From Hirudinaria manillensis (lineage: Eukaryota; Annelida; Clitellata; Hirudinida; Hirudinidae): a stretch of 64,000 nucleotides of DNA. The stretch's first letter is position 1; every line of letters begins with the position of its first letter. Positions 13,801 to 59,903 of this stretch are shown here, piece after piece. The position numbers and the translations under genes are program-made. The DNA is taken from the NCBI GenBank assembly GCA_034509925.1, contig CM067536.1:4706501-4770500 (forward strand). Direction: 5' to 3'. Below the pieces are notes generated by a model. The model did not search any database, was not told the DNA's origin, and saw only the letters and a program-made list of their open reading frames with translations.

Positions 13801-16800
13801 CTTTAACGAAGCGAAATTTTCAAGCAATCAATATATTAACGGTAACTAAATGACAATATGTAAATATTTCATCTGCAAATTAGGAACCCTACCTTATGAA
13901 CTTCGCCGTATGCTCCATTGCCGATGGATGAGCCAATCGTGAGTTCTGAACTTTTGATGATGACTAAATTGGACATGTCAGGTATTTTCGAAGGATCGTT
14001 CAAAAGAGACACCTGGCGTAACATTTTCACAATTATTTCATCTAGAATTTCTTTCAAACAACATATTTATAATATATTTTTTTTTATAATGTAATAGCAT
14101 TAATTTATATTTTTATATTAAACACATATTACTTCTTCTTTGTTGTTTGCTTGAGACATGACTTCTTTTGCCTCCCTGATCGTGTCTTGTGCCTTTTGCT
14201 TTTTCAAGCACAAAATCAACACAACGATGGCCGAAAACACGAAGCTTATCGAGACCACTAGAGATATGATAGCAATCATCCTGCTTCTAGCTCTGTTTAA
14301 TAATTTATTAATTTATTTTACCGATTAAAACACATAAAACTTTAGAAATAAAAATAAATTTAAAAATATTAACAGTTCGAATACCACTAACTAGTTCAGA
14401 TATTCTTATGCAACAAAGGATAAGTTGGAGTACGAGACACTTTGCATAATTTTTTTAAATTTTGCAGGAAGTGGTTTTTTTTTGCAACTGCTCGACTTGC
14501 ATAGAATGAGTCTGTTGTACTTAATTGCACTTCATTACATTCTATGGTACTGGTGTGCTGTCTCAATTTGGAGTAGCCGTGGGGGAGTGCGATGTAAGCA
14601 TCCCTACCTCAGACAATAAAGCCTCTTAAGTGACTATGTTTTAGTGTGAAAAACAAAAAAAAGTCAACAATTTGAGTAACCCCCCCCCCCCCCATCAACG
14701 AATTAATAACCCCCAACCTACTCCATTACTACTGTTACCGCACGGTTTCGTGCTTAATTTTCGTGTTTCAATTGAAACAAATCCAAAGGCGAAACTCACG
14801 CATAGTCCAAGGGTTGGCAAACAGTATCCGCATTGATGACTACCGATTCTGGTTTATCATCTGGACATTTCTCTGCGCAATAGAACTGAAAGAAAAAGCA
14901 TATAGTCATTGAAGAATGTTATTTTCAGAAAGTGAATGAAGTGGTTTTAACTCAATACTACTTATTAATTACGAAAATGTCTTAAAATTCAATGAATAAC
15001 AATAAATTAAAGCAGATATTTAACAAGAACAACCACGCTAATAATAATATAATACTAACAACTTAATTGGAAAATAAAAACTAACAGCTCTATGTTCAGC
15101 CAAAGATTCATTGAGAAAGACTTTGTATTGTTTGCAGATGCTGCAATTCCTGTGTGATGGTCCATGACATTTGAGGCAGTTGTGATGACAAGGAAGGCAA
15201 GTGGCTTCAAAGACAACTCTCGTCTTGTCGGAAGATGACGTGTTTTGAGTGGAACTTAAAAATCATAAAACAAAGTTAATAACAAACTAAATATTTAGCA
15301 ATTACTCACTAAACATTCAACCAGTTTTTAGTGGTTATAATTTCATCGAAAAGAAAAAATAGTTTTTACATTTCTATGGAATGAAACGAAAATGAATATT
15401 TCATAATCTAAATGATTGAAGCAAAAGAAAACAAACTCCGAAGCAAAACTCTTGAGAGGTTGCCTGGATTCGTAATAATTGGGAGGACACGACAATGTAC
15501 ATTTGCTCTCCAGTCTGAATGATTTGCACGACACACACTCTTCCAAAGTTGGACCACTACATTCCCGGCACAGGGGATGACAGGCCATGCAAGCCTTGGT
15601 TAATTAGAAAAGCAATTTCATAAATAGAATCTGATGAGAAATTTAAAAGGATTTTTAAATCATTGATCATTTGATCACCTACGCTTTTAAACATTCTCAT
15701 GAAATGACCGCTGGGACATTTCGAACCGGGACTCAGGCAAGTCGTGGTATTCGGAGGTGAACTGCTTGTATCCTTCCACTTGTAGAGAGGCAGTTTGCAT
15801 GACCTACACCCCCGAACACTTTGATAGGAAAGAGGACCCGTGCACCCGTCTTCGTCACAATTTGGATGGCATTCCTTGCACGTGCCTTCCTCGTTTAGGT
15901 ACTTTGCCTGAGGGCATTTTGAGACGCAATATGGACCGTCCTTGGCTCTTTTGCAACTGTCGCATTGATCAGAATTCTAAGAATAAGTTAACGTATCCCG
16001 TGAAACACATGATCTTTAAAGATTGTAATCATCATGACGTACTGGACCAAAACAGTTGGTGGAGCATTCCTCGTGACACGGTCTGCATTCGTTCGGTGCA
16101 GAGTCAAACATTCCAGAACGAGAACACGACGATACGCATCTGATGACATTTTGATTATTTTCATCCACGAATTTGAAGTTTTTGCAGGAGAAACATTGGT
16201 CGTCCCCGGGACCCCAGCAACCGTCCGATGAACATTCAGGGTGACAAACCTTGCCTTCGTGGTCTGTAGGATCATTGAAAATCTTTACATTAATGATATT
16301 TAAAGTAGTTTTAAGGATAACTTCGCTTCTCAAATAATAATTTAAAACACAAATAATTAAAATACTAATAATTGCTTAATTAAGTTAAATTTCTTTGTTA
16401 TATGTTGTTTATCGTGAACGCACAGCAAACATATCCCTCACGCGAATTATTATCTAAATTTTCGTGATAAGAGCTTTGATAATAATCATGCGAGCAGTTT
16501 TTCTGTCGTGTTTGAATATATCCTTAACGTGGCTATAAAAAGCAATTTTTAAAAAGTAAGTTTAGGAGCGTAAATTACAACGCACTTGTTCGTTCTCAAA
16601 GTTCAAAAATTATAATTTTTGCACCTAGAGTCTACAAATGTTTGATAAGACTATTACAACTCTGAAGTGAATACCATGCGATACACCATACGTGTTACCA
16701 CGTACATGATTTCGATCACTTCTCAATGCTTGTAGTTGGAGTGCCGTGAATAATAGGAGCGTTTAACAATTAACAAACTCATATATTTCTTATCGGAATC

Positions 16801-19800
16801 TAGATGTTGCTACTAAACCAAACAAGACGAAAAGTAAAGGCTTGCTAAATCACCATCAGATACCCGATGTTTGAGAAATTTGATTGGAGCCATTCACCCC
16901 AGAGGCAAATCTCGAATAAAAATCTTAAACAAAAGATCATGTGCACTCGATGTACTACAATTCATTGTGCTTCGTAACAACACATTTTCATGGCATCATA
17001 ATTGACTTTTAGTGATTTGAAACCGAATTGACGGCTAAATATCTTCACGAAGTCATTTTAGTCCCAAGAGATGGTGTTGTGCCTTAATGAGACCTCCTAA
17101 AATATTTCTCGTCACAGCGGCTTGTCAAATGAATCAGGTGAATGTTAATGCACATAAGTCGCATACCTACACCGCTTTTCACTCCGTTCGTTCGTTCGTT
17201 TCTATAAACAGCTCCATTTGTCTGATCGAATTCATTCATTAGAATGAAATAAAAAAGTGATTTTAGTTAGATTTCTGGAGCCAAACGACAAATTACCATT
17301 AATTTGGCAACATTTTAATCAATTTTAACTTAATTATAACAAAAATGTGGCGTAATTGTAAAGAAATTTTGAAGCGAAAGTGTTAATTGAATGTTTCGTT
17401 CGAATTAAAAATCTTTCGTTTAAATAACATCAAACACCGACTTTATTAAATGTTTAACAAAGAATTAATTTTTGAAAGTTGATTAACAATATTATGATAA
17501 GTCTCACTTTATCTTAACTTAATGTTCATACATTTGACTCCAATAATAATAATAACGATTTCAGTACTAATTAATTTCACTATGAACTTGATTAATAACT
17601 CACCACAGTTGGGTTTGTTGTTTTGTATGACAACTTTTTGCTTCGTCTGTTTGATGATTTTCACCCAAGAGATGCTTTGAGCGTGACAAAGTTTGGTGTT
17701 GTTGGAGATGAAAATCGCTCCATTTCTAATCTCTTTTAGTGAATTCAAACCAAGAATTTCCAAGTTTGTTTTGAATACGTGCAGCGATGATGAAATTCTG
17801 TTGTCAAAAATTTTAATTTCTTGAACGCTATAAAAAGTAGCCCGTTGTAATTTAGTTTACCACTAAGACGAAAGAATTTAAAATTAATTAACGAACTAAT
17901 TCAGTTAACAAATGTATGAGGACCAAGACTTTCATAAGGCAAGGTCGTCAATGCTGAGAAGTGAGTGAAACTTCTTACGAATCAAGTTTCATGCCGTGAA
18001 TGATTTCAAGGTTACTGAGGAATGAGAGATTCTTCAGTTGAGGAATGTCTGCTTGAATCTTTACGAACCCTGAAACCTCTCTAATGTCCTTGAGATGTGA
18101 AAGGTCACTCACGTTCATCGGCGGAACGTCCAAATAATCGTCTCTGTGTGAATTGAGTGATGGATTTCACATTCATTCATTTGCTTTTACTTACAGATTT
18201 AGCATTATAAATGAGGCATAACATAGTATTTTCAAATTAGTTAGCAGGTAACGCTAACTAATATTTTTTTATAAAAATTATGAATAAGAAGGCGAAGTCA
18301 ACGAAAATAATTTCACACCAGAAATAATTTTGATTCTAAAAAGCAAAGATTCTACAATCTTTAAAGAATGAAACGGTAACTTTTCTGCTGTCAAAAGTTT
18401 CGAAAGATGCTGGTTTTAGGTATTGAGGTAGTTAGAGAACTGATAATTAATTAACTCTAATCACTAATGACAAATCGACAAACCAAGGGAAATATTTGTC
18501 GTTCATTGTTCAATGTTTTTGTTGTTCTATTAATAGTCACTTTTTGGAATGTGAATTTTAATGCTGATTTGGAAAGTTACTATTTCAATGAACTAAAAAC
18601 TTTCATGTTATCATTACTTTCGCCTTAAGAATTTAAATTTACGTGTTTACCTGTGATTCTGAATGAATGAAGTCAGTGTCTATTAAACATTGTTCATTTT
18701 TTTTATTAAGCTACCAATATTTTATATTATAAGGACAACAACATCCAAAGTCAACCCGAGTAAAGTCAACTTTGAAATAAAAAAGCCAAGCATATCTATT
18801 TGCATATGAAAACAAGTCAAAACCTTCATTCAACGTTACCGAGAAAAGTGAGGCGTCGTTGCATGATTAACATGCATTGAATGTGAATTATTATTCATTT
18901 ATTCATTGAGTATTTCAGGCAGAATATTCATACGCCTCGATGAAGAAGCGCAAGAAGTTCCTACGCTGATAACAATTCGCAAATCTTTAATTAACAAGCA
19001 ACACGTGACTAATACTATAAGTTATCAAAGGCATATATGAAATATTTGCTGGAAGTAACACATAATAACGAGTCTTGTTTAGTTGTAATACCATAAATAA
19101 TAATATAATAATAACAAGAATATGATGTTGATTGTGATACAAATAATAATAATAACAACAACACCTTTCACTTCCACTTAATGGTACAATATAATAATAA
19201 TAATTAAAATTATTATTATAATTATTATTATTGAAAGTAAATAAATAAAGCATTATTAAATGGTAAACAAATAAATATTGATAAATTTTATTGAAATATG
19301 TTTATTAAAAAATGAATATTAATTAATTAATTAACCTTTGGAAAGTCAAGTCAGGAATGAAGATGCTTCCCTGAACGATGGTGCAATCCTTTAACATGTG
19401 AACATTTCTCGAGTTCACGTGGGTGAATTCAAACTTGCATTCTGCATCATTTGTTTCATAATTATTTGAATATATTTTTTAATAATAATAATAATAATCA
19501 TCATCATCATCATTTATTTCTATTTATCAATAATTATCAGATAATCAACGTTAATATCTTGGCAAGAATCGGTTCGTTTTTCTCTGAGTTCAATAACAGA
19601 TTTTCAAAGAGCGATTCAACAAATAGAATTATTTCAAGTAGAACCCCACAGGAAGCAATCACCAACTTGAAGCAGGAATACGTCTCCGATGTTCTTAGTA
19701 TTATCATTATTATTATTAATATTTTTATAAGTTGCTATACATTGCAATTACTATAAATATACAGCGGTCGTCATATCTTTAAACGGGAGATGATTTTTTG

Positions 19801-22800
19801 CGATAACGTTTGACAAAATTATTTTACAAAACCCAAATTTCGATTTGTTATTTGATATTTGTGTCTATTTCAACATAGTAAATAAACATCAAGAAATAAT
19901 CGTCTCTTAAAAACGCTTGCAAGGATATAATGTCAGAAGATGACAGTCAGACATCAAGCAGTTAAAGGATTAAAGATGGGTGACCTTTTGGACACGTTCC
20001 ATTGCATTCAACGCATTTCCTGTGCTCGTTGGCAATCATCCCTTTGCCGCATTCCTGCACACAAGCACCTTGTCTGCTGTTGAGATGATCTGCAAATCGT
20101 AAATTAATTTAAATTAAAATTATGATTAAATAATAATTAAATTATAATTTTATTTTAAATTATTATATCGTAATAATAATAATAATAGTATAATATAATA
20201 ATAATAATACATTTCGAATTCGTAAAAGTCTACCATAGCGGCCTAATTCAGTAAAAATAGTTCAATAAAAGTGAAGTAATTGTAATAACAAATAATTGTA
20301 AATAATTATGGAATCAAAATGACGTTTTATGGCACCAACCAGGACACTTGTCGACGCAAAGTGTTCCGTAAGAGTACTTGAAATTAGGATTTGGAACCTG
20401 CTTAAACAGGGCAGAGTCGTAAACAAATTCTGGAGGACAAAACTTCTGGCAGACACCGTTATCGTCGAAATTTTTGCAGGCCTGAACGAAAGTATTTCCC
20501 CAATTAATTGTAAAATATCTTTCGAATGCATTCAGGAGTTTGAGAATTGAGAACCGAATCGACCATGGAACACCAACCCAACACTGGTCTTCCCGCGGTC
20601 CGACGCAGCCACCTATGCATTCGGAATCGCAGCATTGGTTCGGTAAACTTCCGAAACATTGTCCACCGCATTGTTTACTACAGGTTTCTCTGTTCACTTG
20701 AAATGTAAAGTCATTATTAATGGACCTAAAAACGGATTATTGACAACAGTATAAATTGATGCAGGAAAAGCTCAGATGACCGATTTCCCCTTCCGGTCAT
20801 TAATGCAAGGTCTATTCCGTATCATATAGTCGTCATCATTACCACAGTCATCATCATCGCCATCGTCATTATCTTCATCACTATCATTACCACCATCACT
20901 ATCACATCATCATCATCATCATCATCAAGTAAAGCCAACATTTTTGACAGTTCTCTTGTCCTTGACCCCAGCAGAACTTGGTTCCATTAAAATTGCAGGA
21001 TTCGTGGCAACTTTCACCTGCAATCAGTTCATCACTTTCAGGCAAACAATTTCAATTCCTATGTTAACATCATTCACGGTTTTTAACATAATCGTTCATT
21101 TAATGACATTTAATTTCATAATTTAATTTAATTACATTTAATAAAGTGAAATTTAAACCAAATGAAATAAATTTCAAGCATCAAGCGTGCCTAACAAATG
21201 CCTAACAATATTGTTGAATTAAAAATAATTAAAACGATTTACAAATAAACAAATAAAGTTATTTCTTCAAAAATCTGTAAGAAAAATCCTAAGGCGGGAT
21301 ATTTGATACATAAAAATTCCTTTCACTTGAAGCTTTAAAGGAAGTGTTTGACCTGTTTCGTGATGAATATGATGGTTACGATGACGACGACTACGACGAT
21401 GACGGTGATGATAATGCTGCTCGTGGTTGTGACGATGCAATTGGTTGAATAATTTTGCGACGGAGAATGAAGAGGCGGAGATAAACTTATAAACAAGGAA
21501 GCGCCCCAAATGCATATTAATTAATTTTATGCAATTAGAGTAATACCTGCCTGCAGGAACAGCTATTTTATTTCCACGAAAATAAATGTAGCCCCTATGG
21601 ACAGGATGTCCCTTTCATCAGCTGCCTACGTTAAACTGAAGCAAAATCGGTTCCTAGAAAAAAGGCCCTCAGGACAGGTTTTACTCTCGGGTGCCCTAAT
21701 TTACAGGTTTTACTGTAGTTGTACAATGTACAATATTGTATTCAATTTATAGTATTCAATAGTATTCAATTTATATTCAATTTTCGAACATCCTCGATTA
21801 AGTACTGTTTCATTGGAAAACTATTTGATTGCGTTTTCTAATTTCTTTCATGTGAAACAAACTCTTGATTAGGACTTTTATACATATTTGTAAATACTTT
21901 GTATTAACGGCACATACTGTTTTAAATAATATGTATGAGTAATACCTTCAATTGTCAGCGTTAGTAATGTATATTAACGTATATTGCATTGTATACTTAG
22001 TGATGTATATTAATGTTTAGTGTCCCAAATGATAATTCGACATTAAATATACATCGTTCTGCTGCTTTTAAAAGTTGAAAAGTTTCAAAAGTGAACTTCG
22101 CTCACATCGGACATGAGGGTGGAGAGGATCGTGTTGTTCTGAAGTCTTAATGAGACTCGATTCGCCAGTCACAATGTCCCTCCACAGGATGTCATTTCCG
22201 TGGCAAAGACGGTTGTTGTGTTGGACGAAGACGCTTCCCGATTGAATTTCTGTTTGATCACAGATTGTGAGAAAATAATAATCATAATCTTAATCATCAT
22301 AATCATAATTTTCATCATCGTCGACGTCGTCATGGGCATCGGTATCGTCATCATCACCACCACCATCACTATCAAATTCATCATCATTATCTTCAAATTA
22401 GATAATTATAATAAAAAAAGCTAATAACAAATCAATAAATCCGAATTTCCAACCGTGAAGTGAGTTCAGTTGCAATTCTCGAAGTCCGACGTTGATTGGA
22501 TCATCGGGATTGAAGTTGAGATAAACGTAGAGACTGTAGAAGTTGCTGAGTCCCTCTTCGTTGTCGTGGTACAAGGTCCTACCTCTGATGACCCTGAGAC
22601 TCGTCAGTGGAACGAAGTCCACGTAGGAAATGGCGATCAAGACGTAGCCTGTCACCTCCTTGATGCCAGACAGAAAGGAGAGGTCGGGGTTTGGATCGGT
22701 GATGAAAACTAGCTCGAGGTTACCGTCGACGTGCGTACAGTTGACGTATCTGTTATGCAGCGAGGTGTACCTCTCCTCCGTCCACTTCTGATGGGTCAGT

Positions 22801-23050
22801 CCAAGGCTCGTGCCCTGACAAACTGCGTGTTATGACGTCGAATTGCTTTTTCAAGTTTTATTCACTCTCGGTGTTTTATCTTTTACGATGCTTTTATAAA
22901 ATGGACGCATAAAAATAAAAGAAATAATCATTTAATCTGTTATAAATGGCTGATTGCGATGAGAAAATTGACTGCAATAATCTTCAATTGCCCCTGATTG
23001 GACAATCCGTAAAAATTGTTCGGCAATTTTCTAGCGTAATTTTATTATTA

Positions 23051-50000: not shown

Positions 50001-53000
50001 TGGAGTCGATCTAGGAATTACAGGTAACGTTTGCCTGAAATCTCCTGCAAGCAATAATACTGCATTCCCAAATGGCCGGATGTTTCAACGCAAATCTTGC
50101 AATGACCTATCAAGGGCCTCCAGAGATTTTTTGTGCGCCATTGTGCATTCATCAAACAATAAGTTTGCATTTCTGCAATACTTTTCCCATGCCGGAAACT
50201 TTTGAAATATTGCACGTAGGAGTTTCAATCAACTGCATGTTTAATGACAATTTCAAAGCGGAATGAGCAGTTCTTCCACCTGGTAGCAATGTCGCCGCTA
50301 TTCCGGACGACGCAAGAGCTAAGGCCACATCATTTCGGGATTGAATTGCTGCCAGAATTAATCTAATTAAGAACGTTTTACCAGTTCCCCCTGGCGCATC
50401 TAAGAAGACTTCCCCAACTCCTTTACTGACAGTTTGCATTATTCGATCTTAAATGCCTTTTTGTTCGAGCTTTAGCTTAGGAATATTTGATTGCACATAG
50501 AGCAAAAGATCGTCCATGTTGAAACTTTGTTCACGACGCAATTCCACATCGAAAGAAGCGGCAGCAGATCGATTCGGTGATGGCATTTCCAATTGATTGA
50601 GAACTTTGTTCGTGATTTCCAAGCATCTTCAATCAATCTTCAATCATGATCATGAACTTCGTTCACGGCAGAAATCTATATTCCTATTTGAATGCTCGTT
50701 GCATATTCGACGGGAAATATCTTCCGCCATATGCAGTTTTTATTTCTCCCACAATTCTATTGGAGATGAAGGAGAGCAGGAGGTCAAGATGATTGCAAAC
50801 AATCCACGAATTTGGTTTGGACGCGAAGTGTTACATGCATCATTTATGCTGGTGTATCCAATTTTGTTACCAACACTCTGGTTAATTCTTCATCAGGTAT
50901 GTTTCATCTCTTGTTCCACCAAAGCTGCCTCGAAACGCTTGATCCATTTTTATCTGGTTTTTTACTAGAGAATGAGTTTGTTCAGAGTTACTCAAGGGGG
51001 ATGAGAATGTAATAGAGTCACTAGTAGAACATGTGGAATCGCCAACAGAGCCTAGAAAATTGAGATGACGAGAGGGCGGAAAGTGAGGTGCACGAAACCG
51101 AAATGATAGAAAGATCAGTGGCCAATGAGGATGGCGAAACAAAGGAATCATGGGATAGGGAAGGATCAATATAGAGATCGCGTCCCCATAGCCAAGATGA
51201 AACTTGGAACGGATATCTATTCAGGACGAACAGATTTAAGAAGTGACTAGATAATTAGAATAAATAAAATTAAATTGCGAATAATTCATTTTGTAATTAA
51301 TCATGATAACATAATTTTTTTTTGGTCTTTGAACATGAATCTCTTCAATAATATAAGTTAGCAGAGTTCACTAATTCGTACTAATAGGAAACTCGTAACT
51401 TCCAGCCATCTTAAGATCAGTTACATTAACCGAATACTTCTAATAAACTTGACCTTACATTATTTTGCGGACTCCGCAACAGTATTAATGTCGTGATTAC
51501 CAACCTGATTGTAATATGAGTTCATAAATAAACATATAAATATGTGCTTTAGGAATCCTGATGGTGATTGCATGGTTGATGATGGCAAGTGTCAGCATTT
51601 TGTTGCCGAGGTACTTCAAGTCAGCCTGGCCTGACAAGAAGATACTGGATAAGCCCATCTGGTTTCCTGTCAGTCAATAATTTTTAATGTGTTACATCTT
51701 CATATGTGCATTACTAATCAATAATTAATAATATTAAGTAACTAAATATTAATAATAAGTTATTAATAAATAATAATAATAATATTAATTGAGTAAATAA
51801 TCTTAATAATAAAAGATACGAATAAATTACACAAATTCGCTTACAGGTTCATCAAATATTGATGAGTTTTGTACTGATAATAACTGCCATATCTTTCATT
51901 ATCATCTTTTCTGAAGCCCGAGGATACGCCGAGGTTGTTTGATCAAACTGACGATTCATTGCTCTTTAGTCAAATGATCTATTTATTTATTTAATTTAAT
52001 TATTGTCAATGTAACAACTAATTGTTATTCAACTTAGAATTGAGATAAGTGAACCAAATTGTCTAATTAACATGAAATTATTAGAAACTGAAATGTTGAC
52101 AACTATATTTGGAAGGTTTGCACAAATTAACACATGTATTTGTCGCTTTAGTCCAGCAACTATGTGGCCAAGGCTCATCCTCCTTTAGGCATTATCGTGA
52201 TGATTCTCGTATTTGTAAATGTAAGTCAAAGTGTGTTACATGTTGAAACATTTTATAAACGATTATTAATACACTTCAGCCCGTTATGTCACTGCTTAGA
52301 TGTTCTCCAGATAGCAAGCGTCGGTGGATATTCAATTATTTTCACACTATGGTGGGGGAATTTGTTCTTATCATAGCAGGTACAGGAATTTCGTAGCAGC
52401 TTTATTAAAAAAGATGTTTCAATAGTGTAGTAGTTTATATAACGTCTCTGATAATGATAACAAATTTCCTACTTTGAAACGACTTTTGATTATAAACATA
52501 GTGTAATAAATTTAAAGAGTTAGGTTATGATATTTTATATCCTACAGTATTTTGACTTTTTTTAAATGAATTTTTTTGGGAATGCTGGGTTTTAAATAAG
52601 TTTAGACGAGATCAATAAATTATGCATGTCAATTACCTAAGAATTTAGGGGCAATGTGAACGGATTTTAAAATAAACCTCTTCAAAATATCTGATTTTTC
52701 AGTGATTAACATTTTCCTGAGCTTTTTCATGCCTCAAGCAATGATCGGATCTTGGGTAGTATGGGTAATGGTGGCTCTTGTCTTATGGCATGCTATTATT
52801 GAGCTCCTTCTTGTTATGCACGAGAGATATCTTCAATCCAACCCTTCGAGTAACTAATATGATTCTTGGAAATGTCAGTTCATTAAATTTATAAAAAATT
52901 TAATTTACTTCCAGAAGATAATTCTCATCAAAATAATGCAGGAATGGAATTTCAGGAACAACAAAAGCCACCTCGTTTGTCAATAAAAAACGTAAGTATC

Positions 53001-53163
53001 TATTATTTGTATTCATAGTATAATATTGAAGAGTCTAAATGATATAAAAGTATCAAACTCTTTAAAGATTTCCCAGACCAAGACCATTCTCATAGTTTCC
53101 CAATGGATTGGCGTCACTGGTCTGGCAATAGCCGTTTGTGTAGGAATAGGAGTTGCTACTTGA
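41087..53163 (+). CDS. Reeler-DOMON-cytochrome b561 membrane protein (ferric-chelate-reductase-like), copy B
   Basis: Paralogue of the upstream gene. The model has 16 exons, 1986 nt, 661 aa: 41087-41273, 41346-41461, 41534-41625, 43017-43229, 43947-44067, 44486-44662, 44800-44895, 45245-45428, 45554-45670, 51553-51668, 51847-51933, 52152-52220, 52280-52379, 52703-52849, 52915-52991, 53077-53163. Signal peptide (LSLICIAFLFF), Reeler domain with SPYSVVISSC, Ser/Thr-rich linker over exons 4-5, one DOMON (GSCFQCPNQECFVMW), then a b561 core with histidines in KAHGILMVIAW, FPVHQILM, NYFHTMVGEF and WHAIIELLL. Many exon lengths equal copy A exactly (187, 116, 177, 96, 116, 87, 100, 147), which supports both models. 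The first intron uses a GC donor with consensus gcaagt. The 5.9 kb intron 9 is packed with transposon remains, yet coding exons are intact. Exon 6 start (gaaag acceptor) is inferred from frame and from length equality with copy A. Confidence 0.88.
41840..42620 (-). mobile_element. Decayed non-LTR retrotransposon (LINE) reverse-transcriptase fragment
   Basis: Inside intron 3 of copy B, on the opposite strand. The minus strand at about 42245-42205 reads HCIAFADDLLLLSS, carrying the FADD catalytic motif of non-LTR reverse transcriptases. Further RT-like fragments (for example AKYVSMRSQNWPEMH) follow, broken by frameshifts and stops. Ends of the element are not defined; the interval is approximate. 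Confidence 0.6.
44190..44290. repeat. GC-rich GAGCC-repeat island in intron
   Basis: About 100 bp, clearly GC-rich against an AT-rich intron of copy B, containing tandem GAGCC units (GGGGCCGAGCCGAGCCGAGC). It has no open frame of note. Possibly the terminal part of a DNA transposon, but no inverted partner was found. Confidence 0.4.
46440..46740 (+). mobile_element. LINE 3' ORF scrap
   Basis: In intron 9 of copy B. A plus-strand segment reads KRNNRDDLIQAYKILS, which resembles the conserved region just after the reverse-transcriptase core in CR1/L2-like LINEs (RRxRGDLIxxYKIL). It breaks off into stops and frameshifts. Short and heavily decayed. Confidence 0.45.
47312..47350. repeat. 39-bp near-palindrome
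   Basis: Begins GTTGGCCA and ends TGGCCAAC, with an inner GGGATT/AATCCC pair, so it can fold into an interrupted hairpin. It lies about 60 bp from the integrase end of the Gypsy fragment in intron 9 of copy B. Function unknown. Confidence 0.6.
47400..48950 (-). mobile_element. Decayed Gypsy-type LTR retrotransposon pol
   Basis: In intron 9 of copy B, opposite strand. In element order: a zinc-knuckle-like segment (TCFDCEKKLYADNCPER, about 48850-48780), the region before the RT (NVFKEELGKFTKKARLIL, PFAWEETVNKEIDQLVEQGM, about 48450-48260), RT motifs (SEFAGAYLQMEV near 48180-48140; PFGVKCAPGLFQERMD near 47800-47745), and integrase (RIHINFAGPMEG, EDAYSKWPEVVQMKN, about 47550-47420). The first integrase catalytic Asp expected in HIDxAGP is Asn here. 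Frameshifts, stops and internal deletions make it non-functional, and no LTRs were identified. It is interrupted by a TFIIB gene fragment (see separate entry). Confidence 0.8.
47834..48131 (-). pseudogene. GTF2B (fragment): 5' fragment of a TFIIB gene inserted in the Gypsy reverse transcriptase
   Basis: TFIIB recruits RNA polymerase II to the promoter. This fragment carries what looks like a short 5' leader (about 58 bp) and an ATG at 48073 followed by about 80 codons. It spans the zinc ribbon (CCKYHPDAELL, GDMVCSACNLVVADRV) and the B-finger/linker (VIDVSSEWRTFQ, SRVGDAENPL). The homology stops after ENPLM, and the frame continues directly into Gypsy RT sequence (TIRIQRWLFQYH). On the other side the Gypsy RT ends at EEPKLS. 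The rest of TFIIB (cyclin folds) is absent, so it cannot work as TFIIB. The frame has no stop or frameshift, which suggests recent capture. No obvious target-site duplication was seen. Confidence 0.85.
49044..51000 (-). mobile_element. Decayed Helitron (RepHel helicase portion)
   Basis: In intron 9 of copy B, opposite strand. Pif1-type helicase pieces in element order: ASFDVELRREQSFNMDDLLL (about 50560-50500), Walker A DAPGGTGKTFLIRLIL (about 50405-50355), SSGIAATLLPGGRTAHSAL, LLAGDFRQTLPVIPRSTPAD (about 50055-49995), LKLTINMRMQLQ, ERAIIEAKNKDVYELNNIIQ (about 49725-49665), and the C-terminus TTKN(I)IYP near 49160. The element's 3' end shows a hairpin (AGCCAC/GTGGCT, 49075-49056) and ends CCAG at 49047-49044, one base from the usual CTAG. 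Stops and frameshifts are frequent, and no Rep endonuclease motif was seen, so it is a 5'-truncated dead copy. Confidence 0.85.
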
Positions 53164-54976
53164 AACTTCATGAAGAATAAAAGACCTGAACGTTCACTTA
53201 ATTGATTGTAATTATCCATATCACTTATAAGTTTATATTACCATTGGTCTTTGTTTCGGTCAAGTTTACGCTTAACATTAGGCAAATACAACGTTTGATG
53301 GTTTGATTATCTTGTAAAGGCAATTTATTTACTTGGTACAAAAAGAATTGGATAACTTATTCAGCTATCCCATTCATCAGGCGAACTTAAATAGGAGTGA
53401 AAACCCGCGATAAGAACGGCAAACATCTCAGTCGCATGATGGGAAAATTCATTTATGAGGCATGCAAAATCTTTTATGTAGCCCTAGGAGACATTTGCCA
53501 GATTTTTTTGGCCAATTTTAAAATTCTGGTTACAACATTAAAGTAAACTTGCTTTAAATCATGAAATAAAAGAGTTGTGATTACCCTAGGTAATGTGCAA
53601 AATAGTTCGAACCGAGGACTCCGCACTGGGTTTAAGGTTTGCCTTTAGACTAGCCGCCTAAACAGTGCAAACAGAAGAAAAACGGGTTACCACACAATTT
53701 TGTAATAGTTATTGCATTAATATACGAATTAATGGTTTTATTTTGAGGACATTTTAATATATTATGCATCTATACATTTCTAGTTATTCCTGAAATTTTC
53801 GTCATAACATTTTAGCGCATTAATTTAGAAATTAAAAAAAGTGATTTCGAAAAAACCCTGAAAGATACCTTTAAACATACTCTAAAAATTAATTAACTCA
53901 CGCAAAATATGAAAAAACAATGTTTAGAAGAAAATAACGTTTCCTTCATAACTTTAAGGCATATCTCACGCGTTGGTAGCACTACAAGGTCTTTTGTGAA
54001 ATTACTCACTGGTTCTTCCTCAAACCATTAACTTGTCAATCATTGCAAAAATGTGAGGCATCCCCACAACATCCACAACATTGCACTGTAAAACTCCCAG
54101 GGTTGATCGAGTTAGCAGATGCTTTGACACAGATGCAGACGACTCACCTATTTGGTGCCAATAACCTTATGGATTCCAAATTCTCAGGCTCCAAAGCACA
54201 ATCGATCAAAGCAATGGACATTGAGCACATCAAAGAAGTTAAACACCTTAAACGACACTGCTTGAAAGCAGATGCATTAAAATCCACTTGTTAAAACTAA
54301 AAGGCATCCATTCAATGTTACTTCCAGATTCAATTAGAAACAGATCCCAAAATCCAAAGCAATTAATTGGGAGCTCACGACATTTGGATTTATTTGCATG
54401 AATATCAAATCACCAAAATTTCTTAGGCATGCACTTCATAATGATGGTTCTAATCATTTCAGAGAGATTTTCCTGGCAATTAACTGTTCAAAAATAAACC
54501 ATGACATTGAACATATTTATAATTCAATATAAGACTTCAAGAGAAGATTTAAGAACAACAATTGCAGACAACATTGCCTTCATGATGAGAATTTATGTAA
54601 ACGAAATGACTAGGTAAGTTCAAATCATTCATCAATCCAACAACCAAATATTTTGATCATTATTATTTCCAACATCAAGACATGCATAATGAGAAATTAA
54701 AACAGCTAAAACAATGGATAGTTAACAATGTAAGATCCATAAGCCTTAACCATGATGTAATGAACACTGATGTACAACCAAATGGGCAGGAAACAATAAA
54801 AATACTTTTTTCGCTTCAGAATTAGCAATGTTGACAAGATCGAGATGATGCAAAGCGCAACAATTAATCCGTCCGATTATGCGAGCCACGATACTCGTGC
54901 AAATGTCGACTAATGTGATAATGAGCAAGGAATGAGACTTATAGGTACAATTGTAGAGACGATTTTAAATCAATAG
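53164..54976. other. Convergent 3' interval between copy B and tetraspanin
   Basis: 1.8 kb between two stop codons that face each other; it should hold both 3' UTRs. A plus-strand frame at 54043-54294 (83 codons, hydrophilic) lies in a less AT-rich patch, but has no signature or splice partners. Nothing else supportable. Confidence 0.45.
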
Positions 54977-57900
54977 TTAAAGAAAAGCGCTGGGATTAGC
55001 TCTGGGATCTTTCTGGTTTCTGTATCTGAAAGTCAGCCATATTCCAATAATCTGAAAAGAATGTAGTCATGATCAATTTTACATGACAGGTCATTGATTC
55101 ATTGCTCCCTCAATTGTTATGAGTATGTCATCACACTGTTACCAATGAGTTTGCAAAGACCTATTATTTTAACTATCTTGAATCTATTGAATGGTGCAAT
55201 CCAAATAAATCCACCACAGTGCTTGACAATGGTGCACCAAGGGTAGGAGGGTTTGCCCTGGGAAACATGCTGATGAAACATGTCTGATTAATAGTCATGA
55301 TCCAAAGTTAGATCTTTCCTTGTCAGCCTATGAAAATAAATATTTTGATGGCTTTCTGGGATTTCAAAGGTCATAACATCATCAGGATGTCGATGGGAGG
55401 AGGGGAAACTAGTTGGTACACCACTGATGTTTGATATCCAAAAACTTTTGCTTAAAGTTAAATAAAATTTATAGACTTCCAAATAATGGTCCATGCCTAA
55501 ATGCTAAATGATGTGAAATATGATTTATCATGAATAAATATTATTGTCAATTATTTAAAGTCTAGAAAGTAAAATTATAAGTTATAGGCATCCAAACACA
55601 TTTTCCAAGTAATATGTTTACATAATCATATGAAAATATTAATTAAGATATTCTTAGCTAACAAAATGTAAAGGCACCACAAGCAAACCTTCCTGAAAAT
55701 AAGCAGAGATCCATATTCTAAAAAATATATTTGAAAAGACACATGCCTTCTTGAAAAACTACATATCTAGTGCCCTGTCTCCCAACAGGAACTGACTGTT
55801 TTATTATTTGGTTAACATTATATTATTGTCTTGCACAAATTTTACTCATTTCAATTGTCATTTTATTTTGTTGATTTTTGAATGTTTTGGGTCATTAAAA
55901 ATTGAGAACTATTGGCACAACATCGGAGAGCATTGGTTGCGATGAGGCAAAATCTCCATCAAATATTCTGCCATGGTACGGCCCTCACAAGTTGATGAAG
56001 CTTTGGCTCGATGACCATCCAAAAGTCGTTCACAGGGCACACATCAACTCCAGTAGAGTTGAAATGATCACATTGTTATGTTTCAAAGGAATGAGAAGAT
56101 TGTGGAGACCACATGGAGATTCAAATTGTATATATATATTGGAACTGAAATTCGTTGTTCTCATTTTTCTTAATAAAGAACTTCTTCACCTTCTAAATTC
56201 ATCATTTCAATCATCTTGTTGGAAAGAAACAACACCTAGGAAAGTTAATGCATCCACACCAAACACCTTTTGCTCAACTCTTGTTAGAGTGAAGAAGGTA
56301 CCATCTAAAGTCAGTTCGGGTACTCTTCTAAAAAGAACCAGGAACCGGTTATTGTCGGTTCTGGCAGTTTAAGGACTAAGCATCAAGCTGAAACCTCAAC
56401 AAAGTTTTCATTTCTATTTGAGATTTTAATTATTTTGGAAAAAAGAGAGATATAATGATATCAAAAATTATTATATAGTGATAATATAATTCATCATTAA
56501 AAATTAACACAACACAAGCTGGTGAAATGAAACATTTAACAATTAACTAGCAAGGCCTCTTGAGCTAATTCAATTTGCATAAAGCCTTAAAAGAACATTC
56601 TGTCATGTAAACACAATTAAGCACACTAGCAAAAACAATTTTGATACTTTTATATAAAATAAAGGCAAGATGATAACAATTGTTGAATTATCATGATAAT
56701 GATTTTTACATATGTAGTCAGAGCTTTTCTCTGAAAAAAAAAGGTGATAGAACTCACCTTTATTCAGTATATCATATAATAAAGCAGTCTACTACTGATG
56801 CTACATCCCAGAAAAAAGCACCTTACATAGTCAAAGCCAAGGATAGGCAATGAACTCTAAACAAGTGATGCATAGCAAGAACAATGGAAATAAAGCTCCT
56901 CAAAGAATGAATCTTAATTAAGCATTCTTAAATGGCTCACATATGAGGGTCTTGGTAGGACCTCAGAAGAGAGAGAAAATCAAGGATCAAAACATGAAAC
57001 TAAAGATCAAGCCTCCACCAAATAATGCAAGCCACTAAAAGGCTTCAAGTAACCTCTACAGAAAAATGCTGGGATTGAAGTCAGGACTCTTCAAATTCCT
57101 ATACCTTACTGTAAGCCAGACAGCAAGAAGCTGTAAAAATGTTTAAATAGTAACAACAGCAACAAAAGAACACTGAACAAACTTGACACTTCTGATGAGA
57201 AGAAAGGTCCCCAATCAACATAAAAGTTCTATAAGACTACATTTATCCATATACAAATTATAATAACCTCAGAGAAGCTGAAGAACAGCCCAATTGCACC
57301 AACTGCCCTCACAAGTTGATGAAGCTGTGGCTCGATGACCATCCAGCAGTCGTTCACAGGGCACACATCAACTCCAGTAGAGTTGAAATGATCATCTCCA
57401 TAGCAACATTGTGACATCACCCCACTTGCATTACACAAATCTGAGTACTGGGTGACAAAGTCTCAATTCTAGAGTAAAACTAATTTAAATGTAATGCAAT
57501 AAAAGTAAAAACAAACACATGTGGGGTGGCTGTATTTGGGATGAGAGGCATTGTTAATCTGGTAATCTTTGTCCATCCCACAACAGCCAAGCATGATCTG
57601 TGTCTTGTTTCTCAAACTAGGAGAAGCCAACTTCCAGCCCAAGTAGAAAAAATCTTTTTGTTGATCATCTGTCAAAGCCAAGCAGGCACAAGCAACAGAA
57701 AATTGCAGAAGGAAGATCAAGAAGAGAATAACCATGTACTGAATTAAGAGTTCAGGAAAATATATTCTGACAATTGATTTATTCAACTTTGGCAAGATAT
57801 TATCAGTCTTAACCTATTCACATAAAATGTATGAAATGTAAAAATTCAATATAGTTAATGTGTACAATGTCAAATTCATAGCTTTACAAATAATGCCTTT

Positions 57901-58567
57901 TTTGTAAAGCTATTTTTACTGTTGGAATTTGAACAGGACACAGCACAACTATTGCCAATTTACTTCAGGAAACAAGCTCCACAAAAGGCATAATAGAATG
58001 CAAATGAGCATTCATTATGATATATTTTTTAGAATGCAATGCATGTGCCATCAAACCATTCCCTCACATTACAAGTTATTCAGGTAATCATTCAAAAGAT
58101 ACAAAAAAGAGCAACACTTGGTGGTGCTTCACAGCTCCTACGAGTCCCACTATGGCAATCATGGCAAGGAAAACACCACAAGCTATGATGCCACTAATCA
58201 CAGGGATGGTTGTGATTATTGCCAGTGCCTTAGCATAAGCTGCCAAACAAACCAGCATTGCTCCAACACACTGAAAAAGCAATGTTTAAAAATAGTTCAA
58301 GAAGCAGCTTTGAAACATGTTTGAAACATTAGATATAATAAACTCTAAAACTGTTAGGTGAACCATGTCAAGAATCGCAATCAACTCATGAATTACGCAA
58401 ATGTATCTAGCAGACTGCTCAAGCTCTACTTCAGCCTTAAAATGTCGACCTCACAACATTTAAACCTCCAAACATTATATTTGGAAATAGGTGGAATAAC
58501 TTACAAAATATAGAATGTTTAAAAGTATGAGTGTGTTCCTAGAACACATAAAACCCCCGCAAGCCAT
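54977..58567 (-). CDS. Tetraspanin of the TSPAN31/TSPAN13 type
   Basis: Four-helix membrane protein that organises membrane microdomains. Exons: 58567-58505 (MACGGFMCSRNTLILLNILY), 58270-58103, 57738-57519, 57440-57268, then a 75-nt terminal exon at 55051-54977; total 699 nt, 232 aa. Landmarks: helix 1 over the first junction, helix 2 GIIACGVFLAMIAIVGLVGA followed by KHHQVLLFF as in TSPAN31, helix 3 YMVILFLIFLLQFSVACACL, a large extracellular loop with the CCG motif (GCCGMDKDYQINN) and further cysteines (SQCCYGD, DVCPVNDC), helix 4 AIGLFFSFSE continuing into IIGIWLTFRYRNQKDP, and the tail RANPSAFL, close to the TSPAN31 C-terminus. Start chosen at the ATG giving the family's MxCGGFxC opening. 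A second terminal exon at 57130-57056 offers an alternative C-terminus. Divergent from MED10. Confidence 0.93.
55981..56085 (-). pseudogene. Partial copy of tetraspanin exon 4
   Basis: About 90 bp match the coding part of exon 4 (near 57306-57396) with only about 3 mismatches, in the same orientation. It lies in the intron before the distal terminal exon. On the coding strand the copy covers the DHFNSTGVDVCPVND region. Just upstream it has a 12-nt deletion and an in-frame TAA, and downstream the similarity stops before the exon's splice donor. It therefore cannot replace exon 4. An antisense 156-codon open frame (55902-56372) runs over it and is not credible. Confidence 0.85.
57056..57130 (-). 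other. Alternative tetraspanin terminal exon (proximal)
   Basis: 75 nt, the same length and phase as the distal terminal exon at 55051-54977, with a good acceptor (tttttacag) and its own stop. It encodes LLAVWLTVRYRNLKSPDFNP then SIFL; the distal exon encodes IIGIWLTFRYRNQKDPRANP then SAFL. It lies only 137 bp after exon 4. Nucleotide identity between the two exons is about 60%, so the duplication is old, yet both frames and stops are intact. Confidence 0.75.
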
Positions 58568-59240
58568 ATTTTCCACAGTAAATCGCAAACCAAAAAGATG
58601 GCAAAAAACCACCGGATGATACCACAAGTACGACTAAACGTCACATGTTGGGGACAGCAAGGAATCCTTCTAAAGCGTTTGTTTAAAAAATAAGTAAGCA
58701 TTATAAGTATTATATCAGTTTAATTAAGCATTCACATATTTACTAATCATTAATGCCGAAATTTAATCATGATATCATTTTTCTATTAAATTCACAATTT
58801 CTTGATTGGTTTAGCGAAGTCAAAAGAAATCCAAAATTTTTTTAATAGTCTTTTAATTTTTTAATTTAGTTTACATCGAAAGATAAATCAAAACTTTCAT
58901 TATCTTCAATTCTTTTCTTTATTCTATTGTTATCTGGATATTTTAATTTTTGCAAATAAGTTTTCATAATTAAAATAAAATGAAAATATTTATAGAATTA
59001 TAAAAGTTAATATGAATCTTTGGAAATTTATAAAAACTGTTTAATTTAATGAACGTAATTGACAAAGCTCTTGCCGCGTTACGGTCGATTATTGTTAAAT
59101 CAAACTAATAAATTTTTAATAAAGTCATTTATCAAACATAAATTGAACCTCTATAAACTGAATAGAGAACTTTTGTTTACGTTGCTGATCTGTTGGGTTT
59201 GTGCGGTGGTCGAGGGACTGTGCACTTGTAGGGCTGTGCG
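58568..59240. promoter_or_regulatory. Shared 5' region of divergent tetraspanin and MED10
   Basis: 673 bp between two start codons facing away from each other. It should carry both 5' UTRs and promoters. Strongly AT-rich in the middle; I cannot identify specific core-promoter elements. Confidence 0.45.
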
Positions 59241-59903
59241 ATGGCTGACTCGAATTCAAAATTTGAATTATTGGAACAGCAGTTAGAAATGTTCATAGAA
59301 GACGCTAGACAGATAGGCATTATTGTTGCGGATATGACTCCGATGGGACAAAACGTCCTAAATCAAAAGTTGTTAGTATAGTTCTAACCCAGTAATCTAA
59401 ACTGCTAATTATCTTAATTTAAAATATGATAACAATGCGTTTTTACTGAAGAAACCAATTAGTCACTGGGCTGCAAGATATTGAGAAGTTACGACCATCT
59501 GTTCAGGATGTTATGATCCCCCATGAGGTGTTTGAGTAAGTCCTGTTCCAGCTTAGTCTTAATGTTAACATTCTAGAAGCTCTGTTAATTCATTTTTGGA
59601 AGATAACGTTACTTTTTTGTTATTGTCTTCCAGATATATCGATGAAGGGAAGAATCCTCAGCTATATACAAAAGACTGTATGGAAAAGGCTTTGGCTAAG
59701 AATGAAGAAGTCAAAGGAAAGATCGATGCATTAAAAGTAAGCATTTAATATTAATGCCCTCTAGAACTCTAGATTGAATTCCATATTTAAACAATTTTCA
59801 GAAATTCAAGACTCTTTTGACAGTTGAACTTAGTAAGGTATTCCCAAACGAAATGGCCAAATATCGTCAATTAAGAGGAGATGATCGACCATTGGACAGA
59901 TGA
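59241..59903 (+). CDS. MED10: Mediator complex subunit 10
   Basis: Small subunit of the Mediator middle module, which relays activator signals to RNA polymerase II in the nucleus. Four exons: 59241-59371, 59452-59535, 59634-59736, 59802-59903; 420 nt, 139 aa, close to the usual 135. The sequence is strongly conserved: IEDARQIGIIVADM, NQKLNQLVTGLQDIEKLR, FEYIDEGKNPQLYTKDCMEK, ALAKNEEVKGKIDALKKFK, ELSKVFPNEMAKYRQLRGDD. Start at the ATG giving MADSNSKFELLEQQLEMF. The acceptor of exon 2 (ctgaag) was chosen over a nearer one (aattag) because it alone keeps frame and restores the family residues KLNxxVTGLQD. Confidence 0.97.

What the first reader, a model, noticed from the sequence alone, without database searches (positions are those of the whole stretch)
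54977..57130. Two intact, equal-length alternative terminal exons in a tetraspanin
Exon 4 ends in phase 0 at 57268 and can join either of two 75-nt exons, 57130-57056 or 55051-54977. Both have good acceptors, both stay open for 24 codons, and both end in a stop. They share WLT-RYRN and NPS-FL but differ in the cytoplasmic tail (LKSPDFNPSI versus QKDPRANPSA). The distal one matches the TSPAN31 family tail. Nucleotide identity is only about 60%, so both have been kept open for a long time, which suggests regulated alternative C-termini of the last helix and tail.
Basis: partly seen in the sequence, partly recalled or inferred. Interest (0 to 1): 0.7.

Follow-up and report, generated by a model that had tools for sequence, protein, structure and literature searches.

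The report
Tetraspanin gene with two alternative endings
In what looks like a leech genome, a membrane-protein gene of the TSPAN13/31 type carries two old, intact and different versions of its last coding exon, so it can probably make two proteins that differ in the end of the last helix and in the tail; duplicated alternative exons are a well-known device, and use of this pair could not be shown here.

Summary
Exon 4 ends in phase 0 at 57268. Both 75-nt exons (57130-57056 and 55051-54977) follow an AG, stay open for 24 codons, end in a stop, and share 45 of 75 bases and 14 of 24 residues. They are an old exon duplication: the flanks show no homology (21/60, 18/60) and synonymous change is near saturation (pS 0.87, pN 0.27). 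WLTxRYRN, searched as exact degenerate DNA, occurs only at these two places in the 148-Mb genome. The gene is a TSPAN13/31 (fly Tsp97E) orthologue with a U12-type intron 2 of 4. The genome fits the leech Hirudinaria manillensis (inferred). Most likely this is a pair of alternative last exons, the proximal one with its own poly(A) signal, giving two C-termini. Use of either exon was not shown: no transcripts and no related animal genomes were available. The acceptors are fair rather than strong (ranks 11 and 7 of 125). A new instance of a known kind, of moderate interest.

The parts
58505..58567 (-). Exon 1 coding part from the putative start (MACGGFMCSRNTLILLNILYF)
   Evidence: Translation and GTAAGT donor
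58103..58270 (-). Exon 2 (TM1-TM2 region)
   Evidence: AG acceptor before 58270; donor GTATCTTTTG
57739..58102 (-). Intron 2, 364 nt, with U12-type signals: donor GTATCTTTTG, branch-point-like TTCCTGAAC (8 of 9 to TTCCTTAAC), 13 nt from the intron end
   Evidence: consensus recalled; intron 2 of 4 of fly Tsp97E listed as U12 in fly and human (PMC2831892 Table 2 passage)
57517..57738 (-). Exon 3 (TM3, start of large extracellular loop, CCG)
   Evidence: Translation
57268..57447 (-). Exon 4 (rest of large loop, first half of TM4), ends in phase 0; donor GTTATT
57056..57130 (-). Proximal terminal exon 5a: LLAVWLTVRYRNLKSPDFNPSIFL*
   Evidence: intron to exon 4 is 137 nt
56759..56764 (-). AATAAA, candidate poly(A) signal of exon 5a, 292 nt past its stop; overlaps a strong donor-like AAGGTGAGT (56760-56752)
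   Evidence: sequence match only, AATAAA is frequent here
55978..56070 (-). 93-nt, 96% identical copy of 57394-57302 (part of exon 4); truncated at both ends, a Cys codon changed to Phe; dead fragment
54977..55051 (-). Distal terminal exon 5b: IIGIWLTFRYRNQKDPRANPSAFL*
   Evidence: intron from exon 4 is 2216 nt
54389..54394 (-). First AATAAA after exon 5b, 583 nt past its stop; candidate only

Best explanation
A TSPAN13/31 (Tsp97E) orthologue, single copy as far as the searches show, whose last coding exon was duplicated long ago. The two copies act as alternative last exons. When the nearby acceptor of 5a is used and the transcript is cleaved after the AATAAA at 56764, the protein ends ...LLAVWLTVRYRNLKSPDFNPSIFL. 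When 5a is skipped, exon 4 joins 5b and the protein ends with the family tail ...QKDPRANPSAFL. Both forms keep TM4 and differ in its second half and the cytoplasmic tail. Shown: homology, frame, splice-site consensus, near-saturated synonymous change with limited replacement, no second locus found. Inferred: use of both junctions, the poly(A) sites, regulation, and a difference in trafficking or partners.
For: Both exons intact, same length and phase, with AG acceptors and terminal stops. Homology is confined to the exon: 45/75 inside, 21/60 upstream, 18/60 downstream. pS 0.87 and pN 0.27; Fisher p 1.8e-5 or 3.9e-5 by rounding. With the same 29 changes (stop codon left out) placed at random, 0.0055% of 200,000 trials kept an open frame and at least 14/24 identity; unconstrained drift of 0.4 and 0.5 substitutions per site left 1.2% and 0.14% intact with that identity. 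No paralogous locus found for either exon. Best 19-residue hydropathy over TM4 nearly equal in both forms (1.85 and 1.82). AATAAA followed by a T-rich stretch after 5a.
Against: No transcript or related genome was available. Acceptor scores are ordinary (ranks 7 and 11 of 125; AGs without a coding reason to be used score higher). AATAAA is common in this AT-rich window (241 in 64 kb, both strands), so the poly(A) signals prove little. By eye, exon 5a has replaced residues that 5b and the recalled vertebrate tails share (Q, D, R, A, A), which also fits relaxed constraint. The constraint test joins both branches and rests on 24 codons.
Confidence: 0.72

Rival explanations
1. Exon 5a is a relic: functional for most of its history, no longer used in this species and still intact because the loss is recent.
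For: By eye, 8 of 24 sites depart from the recalled human TSPAN13 tail against 3 of 24 in 5b; 47% of unconstrained simulated copies keep AG, frame and stop after 0.1 substitutions per site and 24% after 0.2.
Against: Acceptor, frame and stop position are all intact, and replacements spare WLT-RYRN and NPS-FL.
Confidence: 0.17
2. Exon 5a is included together with 5b through the strong donor-like AAGGTGAGT at 56760-56752, so the proximal stop lies upstream of a junction and the mRNA is a target of nonsense-mediated decay; 5a then serves to lower expression.
For: AAGGTGAGT is the only match to NAGGTRAGT on this strand between 57300 and 54200, and it overlaps the AATAAA.
Against: A poison exon needs no conserved protein tail, yet 5a keeps 14 of 24 residues with near-saturated synonymous change.
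Confidence: 0.08
3. The second exon and the exon 4 copy are remains of a tandem copy of the gene rather than an exon duplication.
For: A piece of exon 4 lies between the two terminal exons in the same order.
Against: The exon 4 copy is 96% identical while the terminal exons are near saturation, so they are of different ages unless gene conversion intervened; the copy has abrupt ends and no splice sites (by eye), and no other exon of the gene appeared twice.
Confidence: 0.03

Closest known systems
TSPAN13/TSPAN31 of vertebrates and Tsp97E of Drosophila
   Same: Tetraspanin with CCG loop and a U12-type intron 2 of 4 (PMC2831892 Table 2 passage; a table row in PMC2952598 gives Tsp97E a 5 in a column whose heading I did not see, perhaps exons), and the tail QKDPRANPSAFL (vertebrate tail recalled).
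   Different: A second terminal exon with the tail LKSPDFNPSIFL; the listings of nine paper searches showed no title or abstract on such an exon, but several lists were capped and most papers were not opened.
Tandemly duplicated, mutually exclusive terminal exons (Drosophila pip, PGRP-LC, CG42235; passages of PMC9013439)
   Same: Homologous terminal exons in tandem (stated for pip), or alternative 3' variable regions, one to be chosen per transcript.
   Different: The review treats them as 3'UTR or 3' variable regions governed by competing RNA structures. Here the pair is coding, and pairing of intron 4 with the 150 nt upstream of 5b was no better than shuffles (11 of 40 as good or better).

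Membership tests
Tetraspanin family (Pfam PF00335) | Profile match over the four-helix body | tested here: met
   E 3.5e-19 (form b) and 1.6e-18 (form a), 69.8 and 67.6 bits against cut-off 32.1
TSPAN13/31 (Tsp97E) orthologue group | U12-type intron at position 2 of 4 in the coding gene | tested here: met
   GTATCTTTTG donor and TTCCTGAAC branch-point-like site, intron 2 of 4; fly and human state from PMC2831892. Codon-exact position not compared.
TSPAN13/31 (Tsp97E) orthologue group | C-terminal RYRNQKDPRANPSAFL | tested here: met
   Present in exon 5b; the family tail itself is recalled, not fetched. Exon 5a does not carry it.
Tandem exon duplication | Adjacent homologous exons of the same phase in one gene | tested here: met
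Alternative last exons | Both exons spliced to the same donor and separately polyadenylated in transcripts | not testable with these tools
   No RNA data held; only consensus sites seen
Mutually exclusive exons controlled by competing RNA pairing | Complementary intronic elements that pair in alternative ways | tested here: inconclusive
   One pairing tested, intron 4 against the 150 nt upstream of 5b: 11 of 40 base shuffles as good or better. None of the 19 inverted pairs listed in 53000-59000 joins these stretches. Wider pairings were in a script that timed out and were not repeated.

The most novel reading that the evidence does not exclude
An ancient switch in TSPAN13/31 that exchanges the second half of TM4 and the whole cytoplasmic tail: one form with the tail kept across animals, one with a changed, Ser-Pro-containing tail (LKSPDFNPSIFL), so that one tetraspanin gene yields two forms with different sorting or partners in different cells of an annelid.
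Probability: 0.35. Interest if true: 0.5.

Novelty: new member of a known kind. Interest (0 to 1): 0.36.

Why it matters
I found no stated job for the TSPAN13/31 tail in the passages seen (its near-invariance in vertebrates is recalled). A natural second tail, kept under constraint in the same gene, would show which residues can change (QKDPRA, A) and which cannot (RYRN, NPS-FL), and offers a paired comparison to find what the tail binds. TSPAN13 is an interaction partner and modulator of CaV2.2 channels (PMC7567506 abstract and passages), so a tail switch could matter for channel or trafficking complexes; that link is speculation.

Tried and rejected
Search for relatives carrying the same exon pair: none in viral contigs or genome contigs, as expected for collections without animals; the window's genome has no relatives in the tool. 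No solved structure matched at E 0.001 (0 of 177,635 distinct sequences). Structure prediction was not tried because spliced proteins are outside its stated rule. Competing RNA pairing: one pairing tested without support; a first, larger script timed out and printed nothing, so the wider pairings stay untested.

The exon 4 copy as a third alternative exon: rejected, because it is truncated, shows no splice sites by eye, and has changed a Cys codon. The duplication as a recent event: rejected, because pS is 0.87. Read-through of intron 4 as a third C-terminus (EVIIICIWINVVL*): possible, but AT-rich sequence gives such hydrophobic residues easily, so not pursued.

Literature: nine searches bear on the question. 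Listed of found: 20 of 1,075 (none of the 20 names TSPAN31), 5 of 5, 5 of 5, 11 of 12, 3 of 3, 8 of 92, 15 of 26, 12 of 760, 10 of 9,050. No listed title or abstract start deals with alternative terminal exons of TSPAN13/31/Tsp97E. Passages were seen in PMC12084885, PMC2831892, PMC2952598, PMC10087013, PMC10671345, PMC9013439 and PMC7567506; no whole paper was read.

Full report
What is there. On the minus strand a tetraspanin gene with five coding exons runs from 58567 to 54977. Exons: 58567-58505, 58270-58103, 57738-57517, 57447-57268, then either 57130-57056 (5a) or 55051-54977 (5b). Both spliced forms are 235 residues in one open frame and match Pfam Tetraspanin at E 3.5e-19 (5b) and 1.6e-18 (5a). 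The introns before 5a and 5b are 137 and 2216 nt.

Which gene. The distal tail RYRNQKDPRANPSAFL is the tail that I recall for vertebrate TSPAN13 and TSPAN31. Independent of that recall, intron 2 has a U12-type donor (GTATCTTTTG) and a branch-point-like sequence (TTCCTGAAC, 8 of 9, 13 nt from the intron end; the U12 consensus is recalled), and a published table lists intron 2 of 4 of fly Tsp97E, with human TSPAN13, as U12-type in both (PMC2831892, passage seen). I file the gene as the TSPAN13/31 (Tsp97E) orthologue. A whole-protein search of the genome gave 8 matches: 7 at this locus (one of them the exon 4 copy) and one elsewhere at E 0.175. The exact degenerate pattern for WLTxRYRN has two matches in 148,429,096 bases, the two exons. 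A diverged second copy could escape both searches. A Pfam search listed 50 tetraspanin-like matches elsewhere in the genome, exon by exon (146 candidates scored), so the wider family is large; this gene's own exons did not reach that list's threshold.

Which organism. The tool holds a genome of 148,429,096 bases in 23 contigs. Matches all lie on contigs C1 to C13. Contig C23 is 15,581 bases; in the 5,000 bases of it that could be read, translation with code 5 and tRNA calls give cox1-N-cox2-D-G-Y-cox3-Q-nad6-cob on one strand (protein genes named by eye; two further tRNA-Leu calls touch the masked stretch or the end and are left out). This resembles the annelid order as I recall it. Hirudinaria manillensis has been assembled at 148.59 Mb in 22 scaffolds with 13 chromosomes of 14.76 to 8.30 Mb (PMC10671345, passage); another assembly of the species is 157.5 Mb with 13 pseudo-chromosomes (PMC10087013, passage). 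The species is inferred, not proven.

Are both exons real exons. Homology stops at the exon borders: 21 of 60 upstream and 18 of 60 downstream bases agree, against 45 of 75 inside; the exon alignment score was reached by 0 of 200 base shuffles, those of the upstream and downstream flanks by 173 and 50 of 200. Between the two exons pS is 0.87 and pN 0.27 on 15.7 and 56.3 sites; Fisher p is 1.8e-5 or 3.9e-5 depending on rounding. With the same 29 changes (stop codon left out) placed at random on 5b, 33% of 200,000 trials stayed open, 0.0105% kept 14 or more residues, and 0.0055% did both. Under unconstrained drift of 5b with AG, frame and stop required, the fraction intact with at least 14 of 24 residues was 46%, 20%, 5.9%, 1.2%, 0.14%, 0 and 0 at 0.1, 0.2, 0.3, 0.4, 0.5, 0.75 and 1.0 substitutions per site (000 each, no indels). 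So the proximal exon was probably constrained for most of its life. A loss within roughly the last 0.1 to 0.2 substitutions per site would leave no trace in this test.

Splice and end signals. A matrix from 7 U2-type acceptors of this window ranks 5b 7th and 5a 11th of 125 AG sites in the stretch: acceptable, not outstanding; the best-scoring AG (56730) has no coding reason to be used. The exon 4 donor GTTATT is unlike GTAAGT, but other introns of this window have GTTTGT, GTTGGT and GTTCTT. After 5a there is AATAAA at 56764, 292 nt past the stop, followed by a T-rich stretch; after 5b the first AATAAA is 583 nt past the stop. AATAAA occurs 241 times in the window on both strands (172 expected from shuffles), so these are candidates only. 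The 5a signal overlaps AAGGTGAGT, a strong donor-like sequence; if used, it would turn 5a into an internal exon with an early stop.

The exon 4 copy. 56070-55978 repeats 57394-57302 with 4 differences in 93 (96%); a search with the surrounding 301 bases found only itself and exon 4. It has abrupt ends, no splice sites by eye, and one change turns a Cys into Phe, another a Gln into Lys. It is far younger than the terminal exons and cannot come from the same event without gene conversion. The stretch between the exons also holds pieces of dispersed repeats (around 56384-56232 and 55404-55293; most of the 39 other matches fall there).

How it works, most likely. Alternative last exons: the polymerase meets 5a first; if its acceptor and poly(A) site are taken, the LKSPDFNPSIFL tail results, otherwise 5a is skipped and 5b gives the family tail. 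Best 19-residue hydropathy over TM4 is nearly the same (1.85 and 1.82), so both forms should insert normally, and the difference lies in the inner half of TM4 and the tail. Competing RNA pairing, known for some fly 3' variable regions (PMC9013439 passages), found no support in the one pairing tested: 11 of 40 shuffles paired as well or better. Regulation and function are inferred.

Novelty. Tandem exon duplication with exclusive choice, including of terminal exons, is known (PMC9013439 passages). The listings of nine searches (several capped) showed nothing on such a pair in TSPAN13/31/Tsp97E; most papers of subscription journals are not held. New member of a known kind; interest moderate, limited by the lack of transcripts and relatives.

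Noticed in passing
57739-58102 (-): Intron 2 of the tetraspanin gene has U12-type (minor spliceosome) signals, as its fly and human orthologues do.
   Followed up: yes
55978-56070 (-): A 93-nt, 96% identical sense copy of part of exon 4 sits alone between the two terminal exons in DNA that found no other match; I saw no flanking direct repeats by eye, and how it got there is unexplained.
   Followed up: partly
57225-57270 (-): Reading through the exon 4 donor gives EVIIICIWINVVL and a stop, a hydrophobic end without a tail; intron retention could give a third C-terminus, or it is chance in AT-rich DNA.
   Followed up: no
56752-56764 (-): AATAAA directly overlaps a consensus donor (AATAAAGGTGAGT), an arrangement in which U1 binding might suppress the proximal poly(A) site.
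   Followed up: no
59241-59900 (+) and 61500-60130 (-): Neighbouring genes look like Mediator subunit Med10 (Pfam E 0.0029 on exon 1) and BCCIP (E 3.6e-5 on one exon); both matches are below Pfam's cut-offs, and the extents are by eye.
   Followed up: partly
15557-22829 (-): Exons that look like an EGF-receptor-like gene; 22398-22829 matches Receptor L domain at E 1.8e-14, the rest judged by eye.
   Followed up: partly
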